NCBI GenBank assembly: GCA_003557485.1
Contig: PWOI01000120.1
Coordinates: 1 to 5,633 of the forward strand
Length of the DNA stretch: 5,633 bases
Direction of reading: 5' to 3'
From: Elusimicrobiota bacterium
GTDB taxonomy: Bacteria; CG03; SLGR01; PWQF01
This document shows positions 1 through 5,474 of this stretch, one piece after another. The position numbers and the translations under genes were made by a program. Positions within the stretch are counted from its first letter, which is position 1; each line of letters starts with the position of its first letter. Below the pieces are notes generated by a model. That model did not search any database, was not told the DNA's origin, and saw nothing but the letters and a program-made list of their open reading frames with translations.

Positions 1-1063
1 CCCTCGGAGTAAAACCCCCGCTCATAGTAATTGTTTCATCTTTTAAAAATCTGACTTCATAACCTCCACCCACTTTCTTAGAAGTCCACCCTATATCCAG
101 ATTCCCTTCATTGTTCCACCACGAACTCCATCTTATGGTTGGGTGACGCTGATGATCATCTCCCCAGGTCAGGTTCACCCAATCAGTCCAGCCGTCACCC
201 AATGCAGGAAGCTGGGAATATTTGATCTGGCTGACTCCCATACTAGACTCGTCAGTCCCATTCCAAACTACATGAAGATTTCCTGATCCGTCAACGGCTA
301 TATTCGGATCGTATTGATAATTTTCTGATATTACATTTATATGCTCCTTTTCAGACCATTGACCTGTTTCTGGGGTAAAATAGGAATATTTTATCTGGTC
401 ATAATCGGAACTTTCTGTTGATCTGCCATACCATACTGCGTGAACCACATCATCAGGTCCAACCGCTACGGAAGGACGGGTGAGAATTCCAACATCATCA
501 TCAATTTCGAAAGAAGTACTCCAAACGCCATCATGTGGGCTTCGGGAAGCATATTTTAGGGAATTTGGTGCCATTTCAGACCAAATACAATGGATTTTAT
601 CTTTTGAATCAATTGTAATGGACGGAAAAACTTGATTCATTTCCTCATTGATTTCTCCTACCATTGACCACCCTTGGTCTGAAATTTTATAAGCATACAT
701 TATTGTTGAATCCGAACCGCTATTGCCGCCTTCCCATACAAGATGAAGGGTATCCTTTGAATCAGCGACAAGCGAAGGCCGGCTTCCTTCAGGATTAGAA
801 GCACCGACTACAACTATGCCGCTCCAGTTTTCACCATCATCAGAAAATGAATACCTAATCCTATCTGCACCCGAGCGCCATACAAGATGAAGACGGTCTT
901 GAGAGTCAATGGCAAGAGAGGGATGTGGATGTACGCTGGCATTCTCAATAAATTCGCTCTCGTTCCAGGTTTCACCTTCATCGGTAGACCCATAGACATA
1001 AACAAAGTTCCCTCTTGCATGGGCAAAATAAAGTTCGCCCGAAGAAGTTCGTACTATTTGTCT
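1..1063 (-). repeat. Beta-propeller-like blade repeats (BNR/Asp-box type), cut by window edge
   Basis: From residue 652 to the edge (1005), a unit of about 48-56 residues recurs. The core is x-P-S-(I/L)-A-(V/I)-D-S-x-x-x-(L/I)-H-x-V-W, followed by an I-K-Y-S strand. Cores begin near residues 652 (diverged), 699, 747, 798, 848, 904 and 959, giving seven units. A perfect Asp-box, STDEGETW, lies at 677-684, and a variant, SDDGENW, at 725-731. The spacing fits the blades of a sialidase-like propeller. No F/Y-R-I-P motif is visible, so a non-catalytic, binding role is more likely than sialidase activity. The region may continue past the left edge. Confidence 0.8.
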
Positions 1064-3016
1064 TGAGTTGCCATAGGCGGTCGAATACTGGCTGCCCATT
1101 GAGACAAATACACCGGCATCGGGTTCAGCCAACGTCCGCACTTCCACAATATAACCTTCATATAAACCAGTCACTTCCCCGTTATTATTTTTGGCCTGAA
1201 CGCGAAAGTAATAAGTTGTATTTGGATCAAGCCCCATTATGGTTGCGGAAGTTTCGCTGAACCAATCTGTAACCACTCGAGGCGCCGAAATGTCGGGTAT
1301 GTAGGAACGGGACACACAATATTCAGTCCCAAGCGGGTTGCCGTTACTCTCCCAGCTTAAAGTAACGCTACTGATATAAATACTATCTATGGTAATTTCT
1401 CCCGGCAGTGCAGCAAAGGTATAGCTTGAAACAACAATATCAGATGGTTCTGAATGTCCTCCGGGGTTACCTGCTATTACATATCTTTCGTATGATGTGT
1501 TAGGCGAAAGACCGGTCTCTACCCAGGTGGTCGCGCCTTTACCTTCAAGGCTCTTAACTTCTGAATCTTCGGCATCATAAATACGGTAATATGTGGCCCC
1601 TGCCGTTATATTCCACTCCCATCTGATTGATTCAGGTGAAAGAACTGTTGCGGAAAGTCCTTCCGGCTTTAACGGAACATCCCATATATCCGCATATCCT
1701 CCATCCGCTATTGTCCAGTTGTAATCATCTATTATAGCCTGCCTGCTGTCTGCCGCAGGACCGAGATTATATGTTGAATAGCCGCCATGAAAATTTAACC
1801 CGCTTTGAAGTTCCTGCTGAGACCATCCTATAAGAAGAGCATTATAGTTTTCCGTTGAAAGTGTTGCCGTTGCTAAAAAATAATCAAAATTAGTCACATT
1901 TGATACATTCCAACCCGAAATATCCTGATTAAACGCACTTGCACCCTCAAACATCCCTTCCATATCTGTCACATTGCCGACATTCCAACTCCCTATCGGC
2001 TGATTGAATGAGGTTGCGTTATAGAACATTACCGTCATATCCGTTACGTTGCCAACTTCCCAGCCGCTTATATCCTGATCGAATGCAACTGAATCAGCAA
2101 ACATTCCAAACATATCAGTCACATTGCCGACATCCCAGCCGCCGATGTCCTGATTGAATGAACTGGCGCCGGCAAACATCCCATACATATAAGTCACATT
2201 GCCGACATCCCAGCCGCTTATGTCTTGGTCAAATGCGACGGCATCATCAAACATTGCCCCCATATCCGTCACGTTGCTGACATCCCAGCTGCCTATCTCC
2301 TGGTTAAATGAGCTTGCATTAAAAAACATAGCATTCATATCCGTAACACTGCTTACATTTACGCCCCAACTCCCTATCGGCTGGTTGAATGTGTTTGCAT
2401 CATAGAACATCCCTGCCATATTAGTTACGCTTGAGACATCCCAGCCGCTTATGTCCTGGTTAAATGCGGTTGCCTCCATGAACAGCCCCTGCATATTTGT
2501 CACACTTGAGACATCCCAGTTTCCTATCGGTTCGTTAAAGGAGGATGCCTGGTAGAACATATAGGACATATCCTCAACATCTGAAGAAGTGGCATCAAAG
2601 AAGCCTGCAGCGGTAAAAGTTGAGATATTTATCGCGCCCTGGAACATCCTTGCGGCGCTTGTAATACCGGTTACGCCTGGATATACAGGCGTCAAAATAT
2701 CTTTTAGAAGTTCCGGCGTACAATCTGCAGCGCCAAACGCAATTCTGGTTGCTTGGCCTGTTAGAGTAACGGTGTAAGTACCGGCCTGGACATAGGTATT
2801 TTCAAGAATCCCCTCTGTTACACCAACAGGATCTTCACCAAACCCCCAGTCAATATAAAAATCTTCAGGGTTATCTACTATAAAACTAAAAGTTTGATTT
2901 TCAAAAGTCGTTTCAATCAGGAAGTTAAAAGAATCCGGTTCTTCCGCAAGAGCCGGCGCTGCTGCTAACGCAAGAAAGGCGATAATTAAAATTTTATGTT
3001 TTATTTTTTTCCTCAT
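1..3016 (-). CDS. Secreted BspA-repeat / FN3 / beta-propeller surface protein, C-terminus cut by window edge
   Basis: The frame is open from the ATG at 3016 to the left edge: 1005 codons plus one base, with no stop. Domains in order are: Sec signal peptide (1-24); PKD-like domain (about 30-95, with DWGFG and AGTYTVTLTG); a degenerate repeat (about 118-146); nine BspA/DUF285-type repeats (147-373); the family's C-terminal cap (374-440, with LLIGW, F-x-GG-x-S-x-Y, and W-T-I-A-D-G-G); two FN3-like domains (about 447-534 and 538-629); and a beta-propeller-like region (about 636 to the edge). Proteins with such repeats are typically surface adhesins or matrix proteins, so binding to a surface, glycan or protein partner is inferred; no catalytic site is visible. 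The start is fixed by the signal peptide. The nearest purine-rich stretch (AAGAAG) ends only one base before the ATG, so the ribosome site is weak. The anchoring or export signal expected at the C-terminus lies outside the window. The gene has its own tandem promoters and is probably not part of the uxs operon. Confidence 0.93.
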   Translation of the reverse strand, partial: MRKKIKHKILIIAFLALAAAPALAEEPDSFNFLIETTFENQTFSFIVDNPEDFYIDWGFGEDPVGVTEGILENTYVQAGTYTVTLTGQATRIAFGAADCTPELLKDILTPVYPGVTGITSAARMFQGAINISTFTAAGFFDATSSDVEDMSYMFYQASSFNEPIGNWDVSSVTNMQGLFMEATAFNQDISGWDVSSVTNMAGMFYDANTFNQPIGSWGVNVSSVTDMNAMFFNASSFNQEIGSWDVSNVTDMGAMFDDAVAFDQDISGWDVGNVTYMYGMFAGASSFNQDIGGWDVGNVTDMFGMFADSVAFDQDISGWEVGNVTDMTVMFYNATSFNQPIGSWNVGNVTDMEGMFEGASAFNQDISGWNVSNVTNFDYFLATATLSTENYNALLIGWSQQELQSGLNFHGGYSTYNLGPAADSRQAIIDDYNWTIADGGYADIWDVPLKPEGLSATVLSPESIRWEWNITAGATYYRIYDAEDSEVKSLEGKGATTWVETGLSPNTSYERYVIAGNPGGHSEPSDIVVSSYTFAALPGEITIDSIYISSVTLSWESNGNPLGTEYCVSRSYIPDISAPRVVTDWFSETSATIMGLDPNTTYYFRVQAKNNNGEVTGLYEGYIVEVRTLAEPDAGVFVSMGSQYSTAYGNSRQIVRTSSGELYFAHARGNFVYVYGSTDEGETWNESEFIENASVHPHPSLAIDSQDRLHLVWRSGADRIRYSFSDDGENWSGIVVVGASNPEGSRPSLVADSKDTLHLVWEGGNSGSDSTIMYAYKISDQGWSMVGEINEEMNQVFPSITIDSKDKIHCIWSEMAPNSLKYASRSPHDGVWSTSFEIDDDVGILTRPSVAVGPDDVVHAVWYGRSTESSDYDQIKYSYFTPETGQWSEKEHINVISENYQYDPNIAVDGSGNLHVVWNGTDESSMGVSQIKYSQLPALGDGWTDWVNLTWGDDHQRHPTIRWSSWWNNEGNLDIGWTSKKVGGGYEVRFLKDETITMSGGFTPR
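1130..1678 (-). other. Two fibronectin type III-like domains
   Basis: Residues about 447-534 and 538-629. The first shows P-x-x-L-x-A-x-x-x-S-P-x-S-I-x-W-x-W, then YYRIYDAEDS and the hallmark GLSPNTSYERYV. The second shows S-V-T-L-S-W-E-S, YCVSRS and GLDPNTTYYFRVQAKN, a textbook FN3 strand F. They probably act as spacers between the solenoid and the propeller; no RGD-type motif is seen. Confidence 0.85.
1697..1897 (-). other. C-terminal cap of the BspA repeat array
   Basis: Residues 374-440 keep the opening V-T-N of a repeat and then switch to the conserved end module of this family. It shows LSTENYNALLIGW (386-398), an F-H-G-G-Y-S-T-Y segment, a small A/D-S-R-Q-A-I-I-D-D helix and the terminal WTIADGG. 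The intact cap shows that the solenoid is complete and not truncated at this end. Confidence 0.82.
1898..2578 (-). repeat. Nine tandem 25-residue BspA-type repeats (75-base period)
   Basis: Residues 147-373 form nine units of the pattern V-T-x-M-x-x-M-F-x-x-A-x-x-F-N-Q-x-I-x-x-W-x-V-x-x. All are 25 residues long except the third, which has 27. This is the bacterial surface-protein repeat of about 26 residues in the DUF285/BspA-like family. Two unit types alternate: one with SSF/TSF and IG-x-W, the other with AF and DISGW. DNA identity between units is locally high: a 24-base stretch starting at 2118 recurs at 2193. The array ends at the cap domain, which starts at V374. Confidence 0.93.
2729..2929 (-). 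other. PKD-like N-terminal domain
   Basis: Residues about 30-96 look like the Ig-fold (PKD-like) module that commonly precedes BspA-type repeats. Visible landmarks are IDWGFGED at 55-62, the position of the usual WGDG turn, and the strand AGTYTVTLTG at 78-87, followed by a small hydrophobic strand ending in FG (94-95). The call rests on pattern recognition only. Confidence 0.6.
2945..3016 (-). other. Sec signal peptide of the surface protein
   Basis: Residues 1-24 have a basic start (MRKKIKHK), a hydrophobic core (ILIIAFLALAAA) and a type I signal-peptidase site A-L-A before E25. No cysteine follows the cleavage site, so this is not a lipoprotein. The mature N-terminus would begin EEPDSF. 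Confidence 0.88.
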
Positions 3017-3062
3017 TCTTCTTTTTTACATACCCTTCTATGTTTCCCGTGCTTCCGGTTAA

Positions 3063-3091
3063 ATAATAACATAATGTAAAATCTTTGTCAG
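3063..3091 (-). promoter_or_regulatory. Proximal promoter P1 of the surface-protein gene
   Basis: On the minus strand, a -35 CTGACA (3086-3091, 5 of 6 to consensus) and a -10 TATTAT (3063-3068, 5 of 6) are separated by exactly 17 bases. The predicted start is near 3056, giving a 40-base leader. The -35 shares one base with the palindrome at 3091-3104. No transcript data are available; this is prediction from sequence. Confidence 0.65.
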
Positions 3092-3105
3092 TGACTTAGG
3101 TCACA
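3090..3105. promoter_or_regulatory. Palindromic operator O1, Crp/Fnr-like
   Basis: GTGACTTAGGTCAC (3091-3104) is a 14-base inverted repeat with one mismatched pair. With its flanks it reads AGTGA-N6-TCACA with a central TA, one base off the Crp-family consensus TGTGA-N6-TCACA. Its centre (3097.5) lies at -41.5 from the predicted P1 start, the class II activator position. The identity of the regulator is inferred; none is encoded here. Confidence 0.6.
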
Positions 3106-3140
3106 CCCCCTTTTTAAGCTTTCTTTATACCTGCATAGCT

Positions 3141-3169
3141 ATATTAATACACTCTGCAAAAAATGTCAG
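3141..3169 (-). promoter_or_regulatory. Distal promoter P2, same layout as P1
   Basis: On the minus strand, a -35 CTGACA (3164-3169), a 17-base spacer and a -10 TAATAT (3141-3146, 4 of 6) repeat the P1 layout 78 bases upstream. The predicted start near 3134 would give a 118-base leader that contains operator O1. The weaker -10 makes this promoter less certain by itself; the shared geometry with P1 is what supports it. Confidence 0.5.
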
Positions 3170-3183
3170 TGACTTAAGTCACA
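3168..3183. promoter_or_regulatory. Palindromic operator O2, Crp/Fnr-like
   Basis: GTGACTTAAGTCAC (3169-3182) is a perfect 14-base palindrome. With its flanks it again reads AGTGA-N6-TCACA. It is identical to O1 at 13 of 14 bases and also shares the preceding TGTCA, which is the -35 on the other strand. Its centre (3175.5) lies at -41.5 from the predicted P2 start. Confidence 0.62.
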
Positions 3184-3185
3184 AA

Positions 3186-3213
3186 TCACATTTTAATACT
3201 AATGTGACTTAGG
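3186..3213. promoter_or_regulatory. Third half-site and inverted repeat upstream of P2
   Basis: GTGACTTAGG (3204-3213) repeats the left ten bases of O1 exactly, but its right half is replaced by GGGGAAA. In addition, TCACATT (3186-3192) and AATGTGA (3201-3207) form a 7-base inverted repeat with an 8-base loop. It may be a degenerate or auxiliary operator. No T-run follows on the minus strand, so it is not a convincing terminator for uxs. Confidence 0.4.
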
Positions 3214-3237
3214 GGGAAATACAACTGTTTGTTGGAA

Positions 3238-4176
3238 TTACTGATTTGTCAGTCGGGATTGGAAGTATTCTATTGTTTTCTTGAGGCCGTCTTCAAGGCT
3301 GGTTTTTGGTTCCCACCCAAGTTTTTCCTTTGCAAGGGTTATATCCGGCTGACGGACTTGCGGGTCGTTTTCAGGAAGGGGATCGTTTTGGATAGCGCTT
3401 TTTGAACCGGTGATTTCAAGGATTTTTTCCGCAAAGTCGTTTACAGTCATTTCAACAGGGTTTCCGATATTGACCGGCAATGTATAATCCGACTTCATAA
3501 GCCGGTAGATACCGTCTACGGTATCGGCTACATAACAGAAACTTCTGGTCTGAGTACCATCGCCGAATACAGTCAGGGGCTTCCCCTCCAGTGCCTGGCA
3601 TATAAACGAAGGTACAACCCTGCCGTCTCCGGCTCGCATTCTTGGTCCGTAAGAGTTAAAAATTCTGACTATGCGCGTATCAAGGCCATGAGAGCGGTGG
3701 TATGCCATTACAAGAGCTTCAGAAAATCTTTTGGCCTCATCGTAGACTCCGCGCGGACCCACGGTATTGACGTGGCCCCAGTATGTTTCTTTCTGGGGAT
3801 GCTCCTGGGGATCTCCGTAAACTTCCGAGGATGAAGCAAGGACATATCCGGCTTTTTTTTCCCTGGCAAGGCCCAGAGTTTTATGGGTTCCCAGGGAACC
3901 GACTTTCAGGGTCTTTATGGGAAGCTTGAGATAATCAATGGGAGAGGCCGGGCAGGCAAAATGAAAAACCCAGTCCAAGTCCCCCTTTATGAATATATAT
4001 TTTGTGACATCCTGATCTATGAAGGTAAAATTGTTGTTACCGGCCAGGTGATCTATATTATCGGTTCTTCCTGTTATGAGGTTGTCCATACCTATGACCT
4101 GATGCCCCTCTTTAAGGAGCCTGTCCACAAGGTGTGAACCCAGAAAACCCGCAGCGCCGGTTACAAGTATTCTCAT
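3238..4176 (-). CDS. uxs: UDP-glucuronate decarboxylase (UDP-xylose synthase)
   Basis: This 312-residue, full-length cytosolic enzyme of the extended short-chain dehydrogenase family converts UDP-glucuronate to UDP-xylose and CO2, using tightly bound NAD. The NAD-binding G-x-x-G-x-x-G is GAAGFLG (7-13). The family signature SSSEVYGDP (115-123) carries the catalytic Ser/Thr and E118, and YDEAK gives the Y145/K149 pair. R275, in D-P-Q-x-R-x-P-D, is the arginine typical of decarboxylating members and argues against a 4-epimerase or 4,6-dehydratase. SYGPRM (175-180), [10 protein letters not shown] (204-213) and LGWEP (286-290) are also family hallmarks. The position usually Thr in S-T-S-E is Ser116, a conservative change. 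The start overlaps the ugd stop by four bases (ATGA) and has a good ribosome site. It takes the product of the upstream ugd gene. Confidence 0.95.
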
Positions 4177-5474
4177 CTGCCGACTCCCGTGTAATGAAAC
4201 CCTCTTTTTTTCATATCTTCCGGGTCGAAGATATTTCTTCCGTCTACTATAGAGGGAGGATCGTTGAGAGCTTTTTTAATCCTTCCAAGGTCCATATTTC
4301 TGTATTCTTCCCAGTCTGTTACTATCAGCAGCAGGTCACATCCCTGCGCAGTTTCATAAGCGTCAGCGCAGTATTCTACCGAATCGGGAAGTATTTTTTT
4401 TGCATTTGCCGCGGCCTGGGGGTCACAAGCTTTTATTGAAGCGCCTTCCTTCAGAAGATCGTTTATTATGTCTATTGCAGGAGCGTTTCTCATATCGTCT
4501 GTATCGGGCTTGAATGCAAGGCCGAGCACCGCTATTTTCTTTCCCTTCAGGTTCCATAGAGTATTCTTACATTTTTCAACTATATGTTTCTTCTGGTCGG
4601 TATTTATTTTCTCAACTTCCCTTAGAAGGTTGAAATCATATCCTAATTTCGCAGCTATGTCTATGAATGCCGAAAGGTCTTTAGGGAAGCAGCTGCCGCC
4701 GAAACCAGCGCCTGCCTGAAGAAAATGGTTGCCTATTCTCTCATCCAGCCCCATACCCCTTGCCACTTCTTGAACATCGGCCTCTGTCCGCTCGCATATA
4801 TTTGCTATGGCGTTTATATAAGAAATTTTCATAGCAAGAAAGGAGTTGGAAGCGTGTTTAATAAGTTCGGCGCTTTCAATATTGGTCACAAGAATCTCAG
4901 TTTTTTCTTTCAGCGGTTCATAGAGCTCAAGCATTTTTTCTTTTGCCCTCTGACTCTCTACACCTATAACAACCCTGTCGGGGTTAAGAAAATCATCTAC
5001 GGCCTTACCTTCCCTGAGAAATTCGGGATTGGAAGCCACATCATATTCGGCTCCTTCAGGAGCGTACCTGTCTATTGTCTTTTTTATCCATTTGCCGGTT
5101 TCAACGGGAACCGTACTCTTTGAAACCACAACCCGGTAGCCGGGCAGATTCTGCGCTATTTCCCTTGAAACAGCTTCTACATAACATAAGTCCGCCGAAC
5201 CGTCAGGAAGGGGTGGGGTGTTTACCGCCACGAATATAACTTCGCTTTTTTCCAGGGCCTTCTTTATATCGGTAGAAAAAGAGAGCCGGCCGGCTTTTAC
5301 ATTTTTTTCAACAAGTTCCTTTAGGCCGGGCTCGTAAATAGGTATGCCTCCTTCGCGGAGTATCTTTACTTTTTCCTCATTGTTATCAACGCATATGACT
5401 TCATGGCCTAGCTCGGCAAAACATGTACCCGAAACAAGCCCTACGTAACCTGTACCTACTATTGCCGTTTTCAT
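4173..5474 (-). CDS. ugd: UDP-glucose 6-dehydrogenase
   Basis: This 433-residue cytosolic enzyme, of normal family length, oxidises UDP-glucose to UDP-glucuronate with two NAD. The N-terminal Rossmann domain has GTGYVG (7-12), D30 for the ribose of NAD, and NTPP (85-88). STVP (120-123) and NPEF (149-152) line the active site. The central dimer helix carries AELIKHASN, with K206 and N210. The catalytic cysteine is C262 in [10 protein letters not shown], with D266. The C-terminal UDP-binding domain begins near residue 312 and includes [10 protein letters not shown] (318-327) and VDGRN (410-414). All residues expected for the thio-hemiacetal mechanism are present. It overlaps queF upstream and uxs downstream by four bases each. 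The product feeds uxs directly, though UDP-glucuronate may also be used elsewhere. Confidence 0.97.
4184..4188 (-). promoter_or_regulatory. Ribosome binding site of uxs
   Basis: GGGAG on the minus strand lies 7 bases before the uxs ATG, inside the last codons of ugd. It supports the start at 4176 and independent re-initiation at the ATGA overlap. Confidence 0.7.

What the first reader, a model, noticed from the sequence alone, without database searches (positions are those of the whole stretch)
3063..3182. Duplicated promoter-operator module with identical geometry
Two copies of one regulatory unit lie 78 bases apart upstream of the surface-protein gene. On the minus strand each reads GTGAC-YTAA-GTCAC overlapping CTGACA, then exactly 17 bases, then TATTAT or TAATAT. 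Seen directly: the shared 19 of 20 bases TGTCAGTGACTTARGTCACA, and the equal spacing. From family knowledge: AGTGA-N6-TCACA matches Crp/Fnr-type sites, and a centre at -41.5 is the class II activation position. Inferred: a Crp-like activator drives both promoters, and binding at O1 could block transcripts coming from P2, so that the two starts respond differently.
Basis: partly seen in the sequence, partly recalled or inferred. Interest (0 to 1): 0.72.

Follow-up and report, generated by a model that had tools for sequence, protein, structure and literature searches.

The report
Twin Crp-type promoters, surface-protein gene
Two near-identical switches sit in front of a surface-protein gene of an uncultured bacterium; they match a small set of switches before exported-protein genes in the same genome that a cAMP-sensing regulator of the Crp type most likely turns on, which extends a known mechanism to an unstudied group of bacteria.

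Summary
On the minus strand two copies of TGTGAC-N4-GTCACTGACA, 17 bp, TATTAT/TAATAT lie 78 bp apart upstream of an exported DUF285/fn3/BNR protein; both palindromes centre at a predicted -41.5. It is not chance: the composite pattern occurs 7 times in the 2.07-Mb genome, all with at most 1 mismatch and none with 2-3, all upstream of exported-protein genes. The 12 other near-matches to the bare palindrome lie inside ORFs. The genome has one detectable Crp/Fnr gene, with CRP's R-E-R recognition residues and cyclic-nucleotide cassette, and at least three adenylate-type class III cyclases. The box recurs at a fixed position before FecR-domain genes in six of seven genomes of the order that keep a Crp ortholog, and before none of four FecR genes in the one genome lacking it. 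In two relatives the order is CHASE2-cyclase, box, FecR, outer-membrane-like protein. So this is a small Crp class II regulon for envelope proteins, a new member of a known kind, resembling S. meliloti Clr and the CHASE2-FecR clusters of Campylobacterota. Among sites scanned, only the window gene carries two full copies; what the second does is untested. Binding, ligand and transcript starts are inferred.

The parts
3091..3104 (-). O1: palindromic Crp-type operator GTGACCTAAGTCAC (full box TGTGACCTAAGTCACTGACA at 3086-3105)
3086..3091 (-). P1 -35 hexamer CTGACA overlapping O1
3063..3068 (-). P1 -10 hexamer TATTAT after a 17-bp spacer; predicted start near 3056
   Evidence: start inferred, not mapped
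3169..3182 (-). O2: perfect palindrome GTGACTTAAGTCAC (full box TGTGACTTAAGTCACTGACA at 3164-3183)
3164..3169 (-). P2 -35 hexamer CTGACA overlapping O2
3141..3146 (-). P2 -10 hexamer TAATAT after a 17-bp spacer; predicted start near 3134
   Evidence: start inferred, not mapped
2..3016 (-). Regulated gene: exported DUF285 / fibronectin III / BNR-repeat surface-type protein, cut by the contig end
   Evidence: signal peptide by eye
3204..3213 (-). Lone half-box (GTGACTTAGG on the + strand), no promoter at the matching distance; possibly a decayed third site, role doubtful
   Evidence: by eye; not picked up as a second box

Best explanation
O1 and O2 are binding sites for the genome's single detected Crp-family activator (G000:C84:41667-42356, plus stop). 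Each overlaps the -35 region of its own sigma-70-type promoter at -41.5. When a class III cyclase raises cAMP, Crp dimers bind and recruit RNA polymerase at P1 and P2 (class II activation), raising expression of the surface protein. The two promoters belong to a small regulon of exported proteins whose conserved core is a FecR-domain/outer-membrane-type operon, next to a CHASE2 cyclase gene in two relatives. Shown by sequence: motif, geometry, genome-wide restriction, conservation, presence of regulator and cyclases. Inferred: binding, cAMP as ligand, start sites, activation. The doubled module most likely raises promoter strength or cAMP sensitivity of this one gene (inference, lower confidence than the rest).
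For: Composite found 7 times in the genome, all with at most 1 mismatch, all before exported-protein genes. All 12 other near-matches to the palindrome lie inside ORFs. One protein with a Crp-type HTH, CRP-like SRExxxR recognition helix and GE...RSA cassette; closest solved relatives are Crp-family regulators, E. coli CAP among them. Four PF00211 cyclases, three with clear adenylate-type K/T residues. PWM scan of 25 FecR genes in 8 genomes is bimodal: 8 have a box at -244 to -275 from the FecR domain; G005, without a Crp ortholog, has 0 of 4. CHASE2-cyclase/box/FecR gene order in G003 and G004.
Against: No binding or transcript data. The MAG is 87% complete, so another Crp/Fnr gene may be missing. 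E. coli CRP's T127/S128 are A/D here, so the ligand is uncertain. G006 (66% complete) has a Crp ortholog but no box, and the G002 and G007 boxes are weaker. The bare palindrome is not enriched. G004 sites also precede genes for non-exported proteins (PilZ, PAS kinase).
Confidence: 0.85

Rival explanations
1. Same Crp activation, but the second module is not a simple second promoter: Crp at O2 acts as an upstream site that helps P1 (synergy), or Crp at O1 blocks polymerase coming from P2.
For: O2 lies 78 bp upstream of O1, i.e. at -119.5 from the P1 start; tandem CRP sites acting together are known from E. coli (own knowledge). P2 transcription must cross O1 (sequence).
Against: O2 has its own complete promoter in the exact regulon geometry, so a promoter role is the simplest reading. 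78 bp is about 7.4 helical turns, not an integral number. Nothing here tests it.
Confidence: 0.3
2. The palindromes are operators of another dimeric regulator, not of the C84 Crp protein; the position over the -35 could then mean repression.
For: The regulator-site link is by inference only; the genome is 87% complete, so other regulators could be missing; overlap with the -35 is also a repressor position in general (own knowledge).
Against: TGTGA-N6-TCACA half-sites fit the R-E-R recognition helix of the only Crp found. Centre is exactly -41.5 at all seven sites. Boxes are absent where the Crp ortholog is absent (G005), though that is one genome.
Confidence: 0.12
3. The inverted repeats are RNA or DNA hairpins (terminator-like) and the promoter resemblance is accidental.
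For: The terminator scan flags O2 as a 5-bp stem followed by T residues.
Against: The stem is only 5 bp; seven sites share the -35/-10 geometry and precede genes; the box is conserved at a fixed place before FecR genes.
Confidence: 0.03

Closest known systems
E. coli CRP (CAP) class II promoters
   Same: TGTGA-N6-TCACA half-sites, operator over the -35 at -41.5; R180/E181/R185-type recognition helix and GE..RS cyclic-nucleotide cassette kept
   Different: T127/S128 positions are A/D; a small, mainly envelope-protein regulon; two complete modules in tandem before one gene
Sinorhizobium meliloti Clr regulon (PMC10127613, PMC5498481)
   Same: Its core motif GTNNCNNNNGNNAC includes this box; class I/II-like placement; a CHASE2 cyclase (CyaD1) feeds it; a FecR-domain target gene (SMc02177)
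   Different: Different phylum and box letters (TGTTN8AACA type); orthology not tested
CHASE2 adenylate cyclase - FecR outer-membrane protein clusters of Campylobacterota (PMC9239204)
   Same: CHASE2 class III cyclase gene next to a FecR-domain exported-protein gene (G003, G004)
   Different: Here a Crp operator lies between the two genes; presence of the TPR and phosphodiesterase genes was not tested
GlxR of Corynebacterium glutamicum (PMC4254451)
   Same: Consensus TGTGANNTANNTCACA fits O1 and O2; Crp-family chains of this type are among the sequence relatives with solved structures
   Different: Actinobacterial regulator; asparagine rather than A/D at the cAMP contact position (PMC4254451)

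Membership tests
Class II Crp-dependent promoter | Operator centred at about -41.5, overlapping the -35 | tested here: met
   seven sites with identical geometry (starts predicted from the -10, not mapped)
Class II Crp-dependent promoter | Activator binds and transcription depends on it | not testable with these tools
   needs EMSA and reporter assays
CRP-type regulator (C84 protein) | Cyclic-nucleotide-binding domain plus Crp-type HTH | tested here: met
   PF00027 3.5e-26, PF13545 2.1e-14, PF00325 1.1e-5
CRP-type regulator (C84 protein) | R-E-R recognition residues for TGTGA | tested here: met
   GTSREVISRIL against GCSRETVGRIL of E. coli CRP
CRP-type regulator (C84 protein) | cAMP-binding residues | tested here: inconclusive
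   E72, R82 and S83 equivalents kept; T127/S128 replaced by A/D
cAMP-Crp circuit | Adenylate cyclase present in the same genome | tested here: met
   four PF00211 proteins, three with clear adenylate-type K/T residues; activity not tested
FNR subfamily | TTGAT-type half-site and E-S-R recognition helix (own knowledge) | tested here: not met
   TGTGA half-site and SRExxxR helix
Clr regulon | Regulator orthologous to S. meliloti Clr (cluster G) | not tested
   Clr sequence not compared; functional analogy only

The most novel reading that the evidence does not exclude
The order carries a self-contained envelope-sensing circuit: a CHASE2 cyclase, its neighbouring FecR/outer-membrane operon and Crp form a loop in which cAMP-Crp feeds back on the FecR genes beside the cyclase, and surface genes (DUF285, kelch, BNR proteins) were recruited by gaining stand-alone class II boxes, the window gene taking two for a sharper response.
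Probability: 0.35. Interest if true: 0.6.

Novelty: new member of a known kind. Interest (0 to 1): 0.42.

Why it matters
It gives a small, discrete and testable Crp regulon in an uncultured bacterial lineage from sequence alone. It also supplies a candidate transcriptional output, FecR-type and surface proteins, for the CHASE2-cyclase/FecR gene clusters seen in other phyla, whose shared pathway has so far been suggested from gene neighbourhood.

Tried and rejected
Bare-palindrome enrichment: not enriched (19 vs 31 control); only the composite is informative. FNR-type reading: half-site and recognition helix do not fit. Block duplication of 78 bp: rejected, flanks and spacers near chance. Terminator reading of O2 (weak hairpin plus T run): not favoured, because the same box sits over promoters elsewhere. 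A third full module upstream of O2: only a half-box at 3204-3213. Conservation of the tandem pair could not be tested: no full-length ortholog of the window gene in the same-genus genome. No second strong box on the same strand within 300 bp of the other sites scanned. One Pfam call failed on a wrong frame and was repeated. A literature search for tandem class II CRP promoters gave no clear precedent and no exclusion.

Full report
Observation. The window is contig C140 of a 2.07-Mb draft genome (212 contigs, 86.6% complete). Three genes run on the minus strand: UDP-glucose dehydrogenase (4173-5474), an NAD-dependent epimerase/decarboxylase-like gene (3238-4176) and an exported DUF285/fn3/BNR protein (2-3016). 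In the 221-bp gap before the last gene lie two copies of TGTGAC(C/T)TAAGTCACTGACA-17 bp-TATTAT/TAATAT, 78 bp apart. The consensus scanner independently reports both promoters on the minus strand at these places. Palindrome centres are 3097.5 and 3175.5, i.e. -41.5 from predicted starts at 3056 and 3134. The box is identical at 19/20, the spacer at 7/17 and the flanks at 9/35 and 11/35. Only the letters a regulator and polymerase would read are shared, so the two modules are not a recent block copy.

More than chance. The palindrome alone allowing 1 mismatch is not enriched in the genome (19 against 31 for the reversed control). The composite TGTGAC-N4-GTCAC-WGACA-N17-TANNNT allowing 3 mismatches gives seven matches, all with at most one mismatch and none with two or three, against two control matches and no control match at two mismatches. 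All five exact palindromes of the genome are in this composite. The 12 near-palindromes that are not in it all lie inside ORFs. The composite was written down after seeing several of the own sites, so its exact score is somewhat favourable; the other genomes and the reversed control are not affected by that.

Targets. The seven sites precede six genes, all with an N-terminal signal peptide by eye (no signal-peptide predictor was at hand). They are the window gene (two sites), a FecR-domain protein (C104), two paralogous kelch proteins (C106, C4), a BNR/sortilin-like protein followed by FecR and a further exported protein (C145), and an fn3 protein (C37, apparent ATA start).

Regulator. Searches for the two Crp HTH families find exactly one gene, C84:41667-42356 plus stop. 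A second cNMP-binding protein (C85) gave no match to the Crp HTH families. The C84 protein has PF00027, PF13545 and PF00325 and matches solved Crp-family regulators, E. coli CAP among them. Aligned to E. coli CRP, it keeps the S-R-E-x-x-x-R recognition residues and the GE...RSA cassette; the T127/S128 pair is A/D. Four class III cyclase genes are present. C32 (with a CHASE2 domain), C37 and C142 show the K...T adenylate-type residues (the residue rule is own knowledge); C160 is less clear.

Relatives. Crp orthologs occur in G001 (88%), G002 (56%), G003 (49%), G004 (50%), G006 (53%) and G007 (44%); G005 has only a distant cNMP-domain hit. Composite sites at up to two mismatches occur in G001 (1), G003 (1) and G004 (8), against ten in roughly 130 genomes of other phyla. 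A PWM from the seven own sites, run over up to 1000 bp upstream of all 25 FecR domains in eight genomes, gives a bimodal result. Eight genes score 13.5-27 at -244 to -275 from the domain: G000 C104, G001 C219, G002 C57, G003 C212 and C217, G004 C51 and C117, G007 C25. The remaining 17 score 8.4 or less at scattered positions. None of the four FecR genes of G005 has a box. C104 was in the training set and is not independent. In G003 C217 and G004 C51 the order is CHASE2-cyclase, box, FecR, outer-membrane-like protein. In G003 the next gene is a relative of the window protein (54% over part of its DUF285 region), which ties the window gene to the same set of genes.

Mechanism. The best reading is cAMP-Crp class II activation of P1 and P2. 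Shown: sites, geometry, genome-wide restriction, conservation, presence of regulator and cyclases. Inferred: binding, ligand, starts, activation. The purpose of the doubled module is open. O1 and O2 are nearly identical and should fill together, which favours a stronger or more cAMP-sensitive output over differential use. A synergy role of O2 on P1 or a roadblock by O1 is not excluded. No other site scanned has a second strong box on the same strand within 300 bp.

Comparison. It works like E. coli class II CRP promoters and like Clr of S. meliloti, whose core motif is GTNNCNNNNGNNAC, whose targets include a FecR-domain gene and which a CHASE2 cyclase feeds (PMC10127613, PMC5498481). CHASE2 cyclase-FecR clusters are described in Campylobacterota (PMC9239204), and CHASE2 kinase-FecR operons in Burkholderia (PMC5192318). 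Orthology to Clr was not tested. Verdict: real, probably functional, a new member of a known kind in an unstudied group.

Noticed in passing
L088:2986-3132 (G000:C37), minus strand: The fn3 exported protein under a Crp box has a clear signal peptide, but the only plausible start is ATA, with a TAG stop directly before it: a rare start codon, an assembly error or a damaged gene.
   Followed up: partly
window 3185-3217: Upstream of O2 lie a lone half-box GTGACTTAGG (3204-3213, + strand) and an inverted repeat of TCACATT and AATGTGA, without a promoter at the right distance; possibly a decayed third site.
   Followed up: partly
L121 (G005:C75) and L066 (G005:C50): G005 appears to keep a cyclase gene next to a FecR gene but lacks the Crp ortholog and all boxes, which suggests joint loss of regulator and sites.
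   Followed up: partly
L032, L033, L035, L038 (genomes G061, G092, G059, other phyla): Several of the few composite matches in unrelated genomes also lie before genes with signal peptides, so Crp class II control of exported proteins may be more widespread.
   Followed up: no
L104:2846-2888, L103:1481-1523, L101:2450-2492 (G004): In G004 the same composite also precedes a PilJ-type histidine kinase, a PAS histidine kinase and a PilZ protein, suggesting a link to pilus or c-di-GMP signalling there.
   Followed up: partly
L090 and L091 (G000:C106, C4): Two kelch-repeat exported proteins are paralogs including their Crp promoters; box letters differ (GTGACCCAGGTCAC, GTGATCAAAGTCAC) while spacer and -10 are nearly identical.
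   Followed up: no
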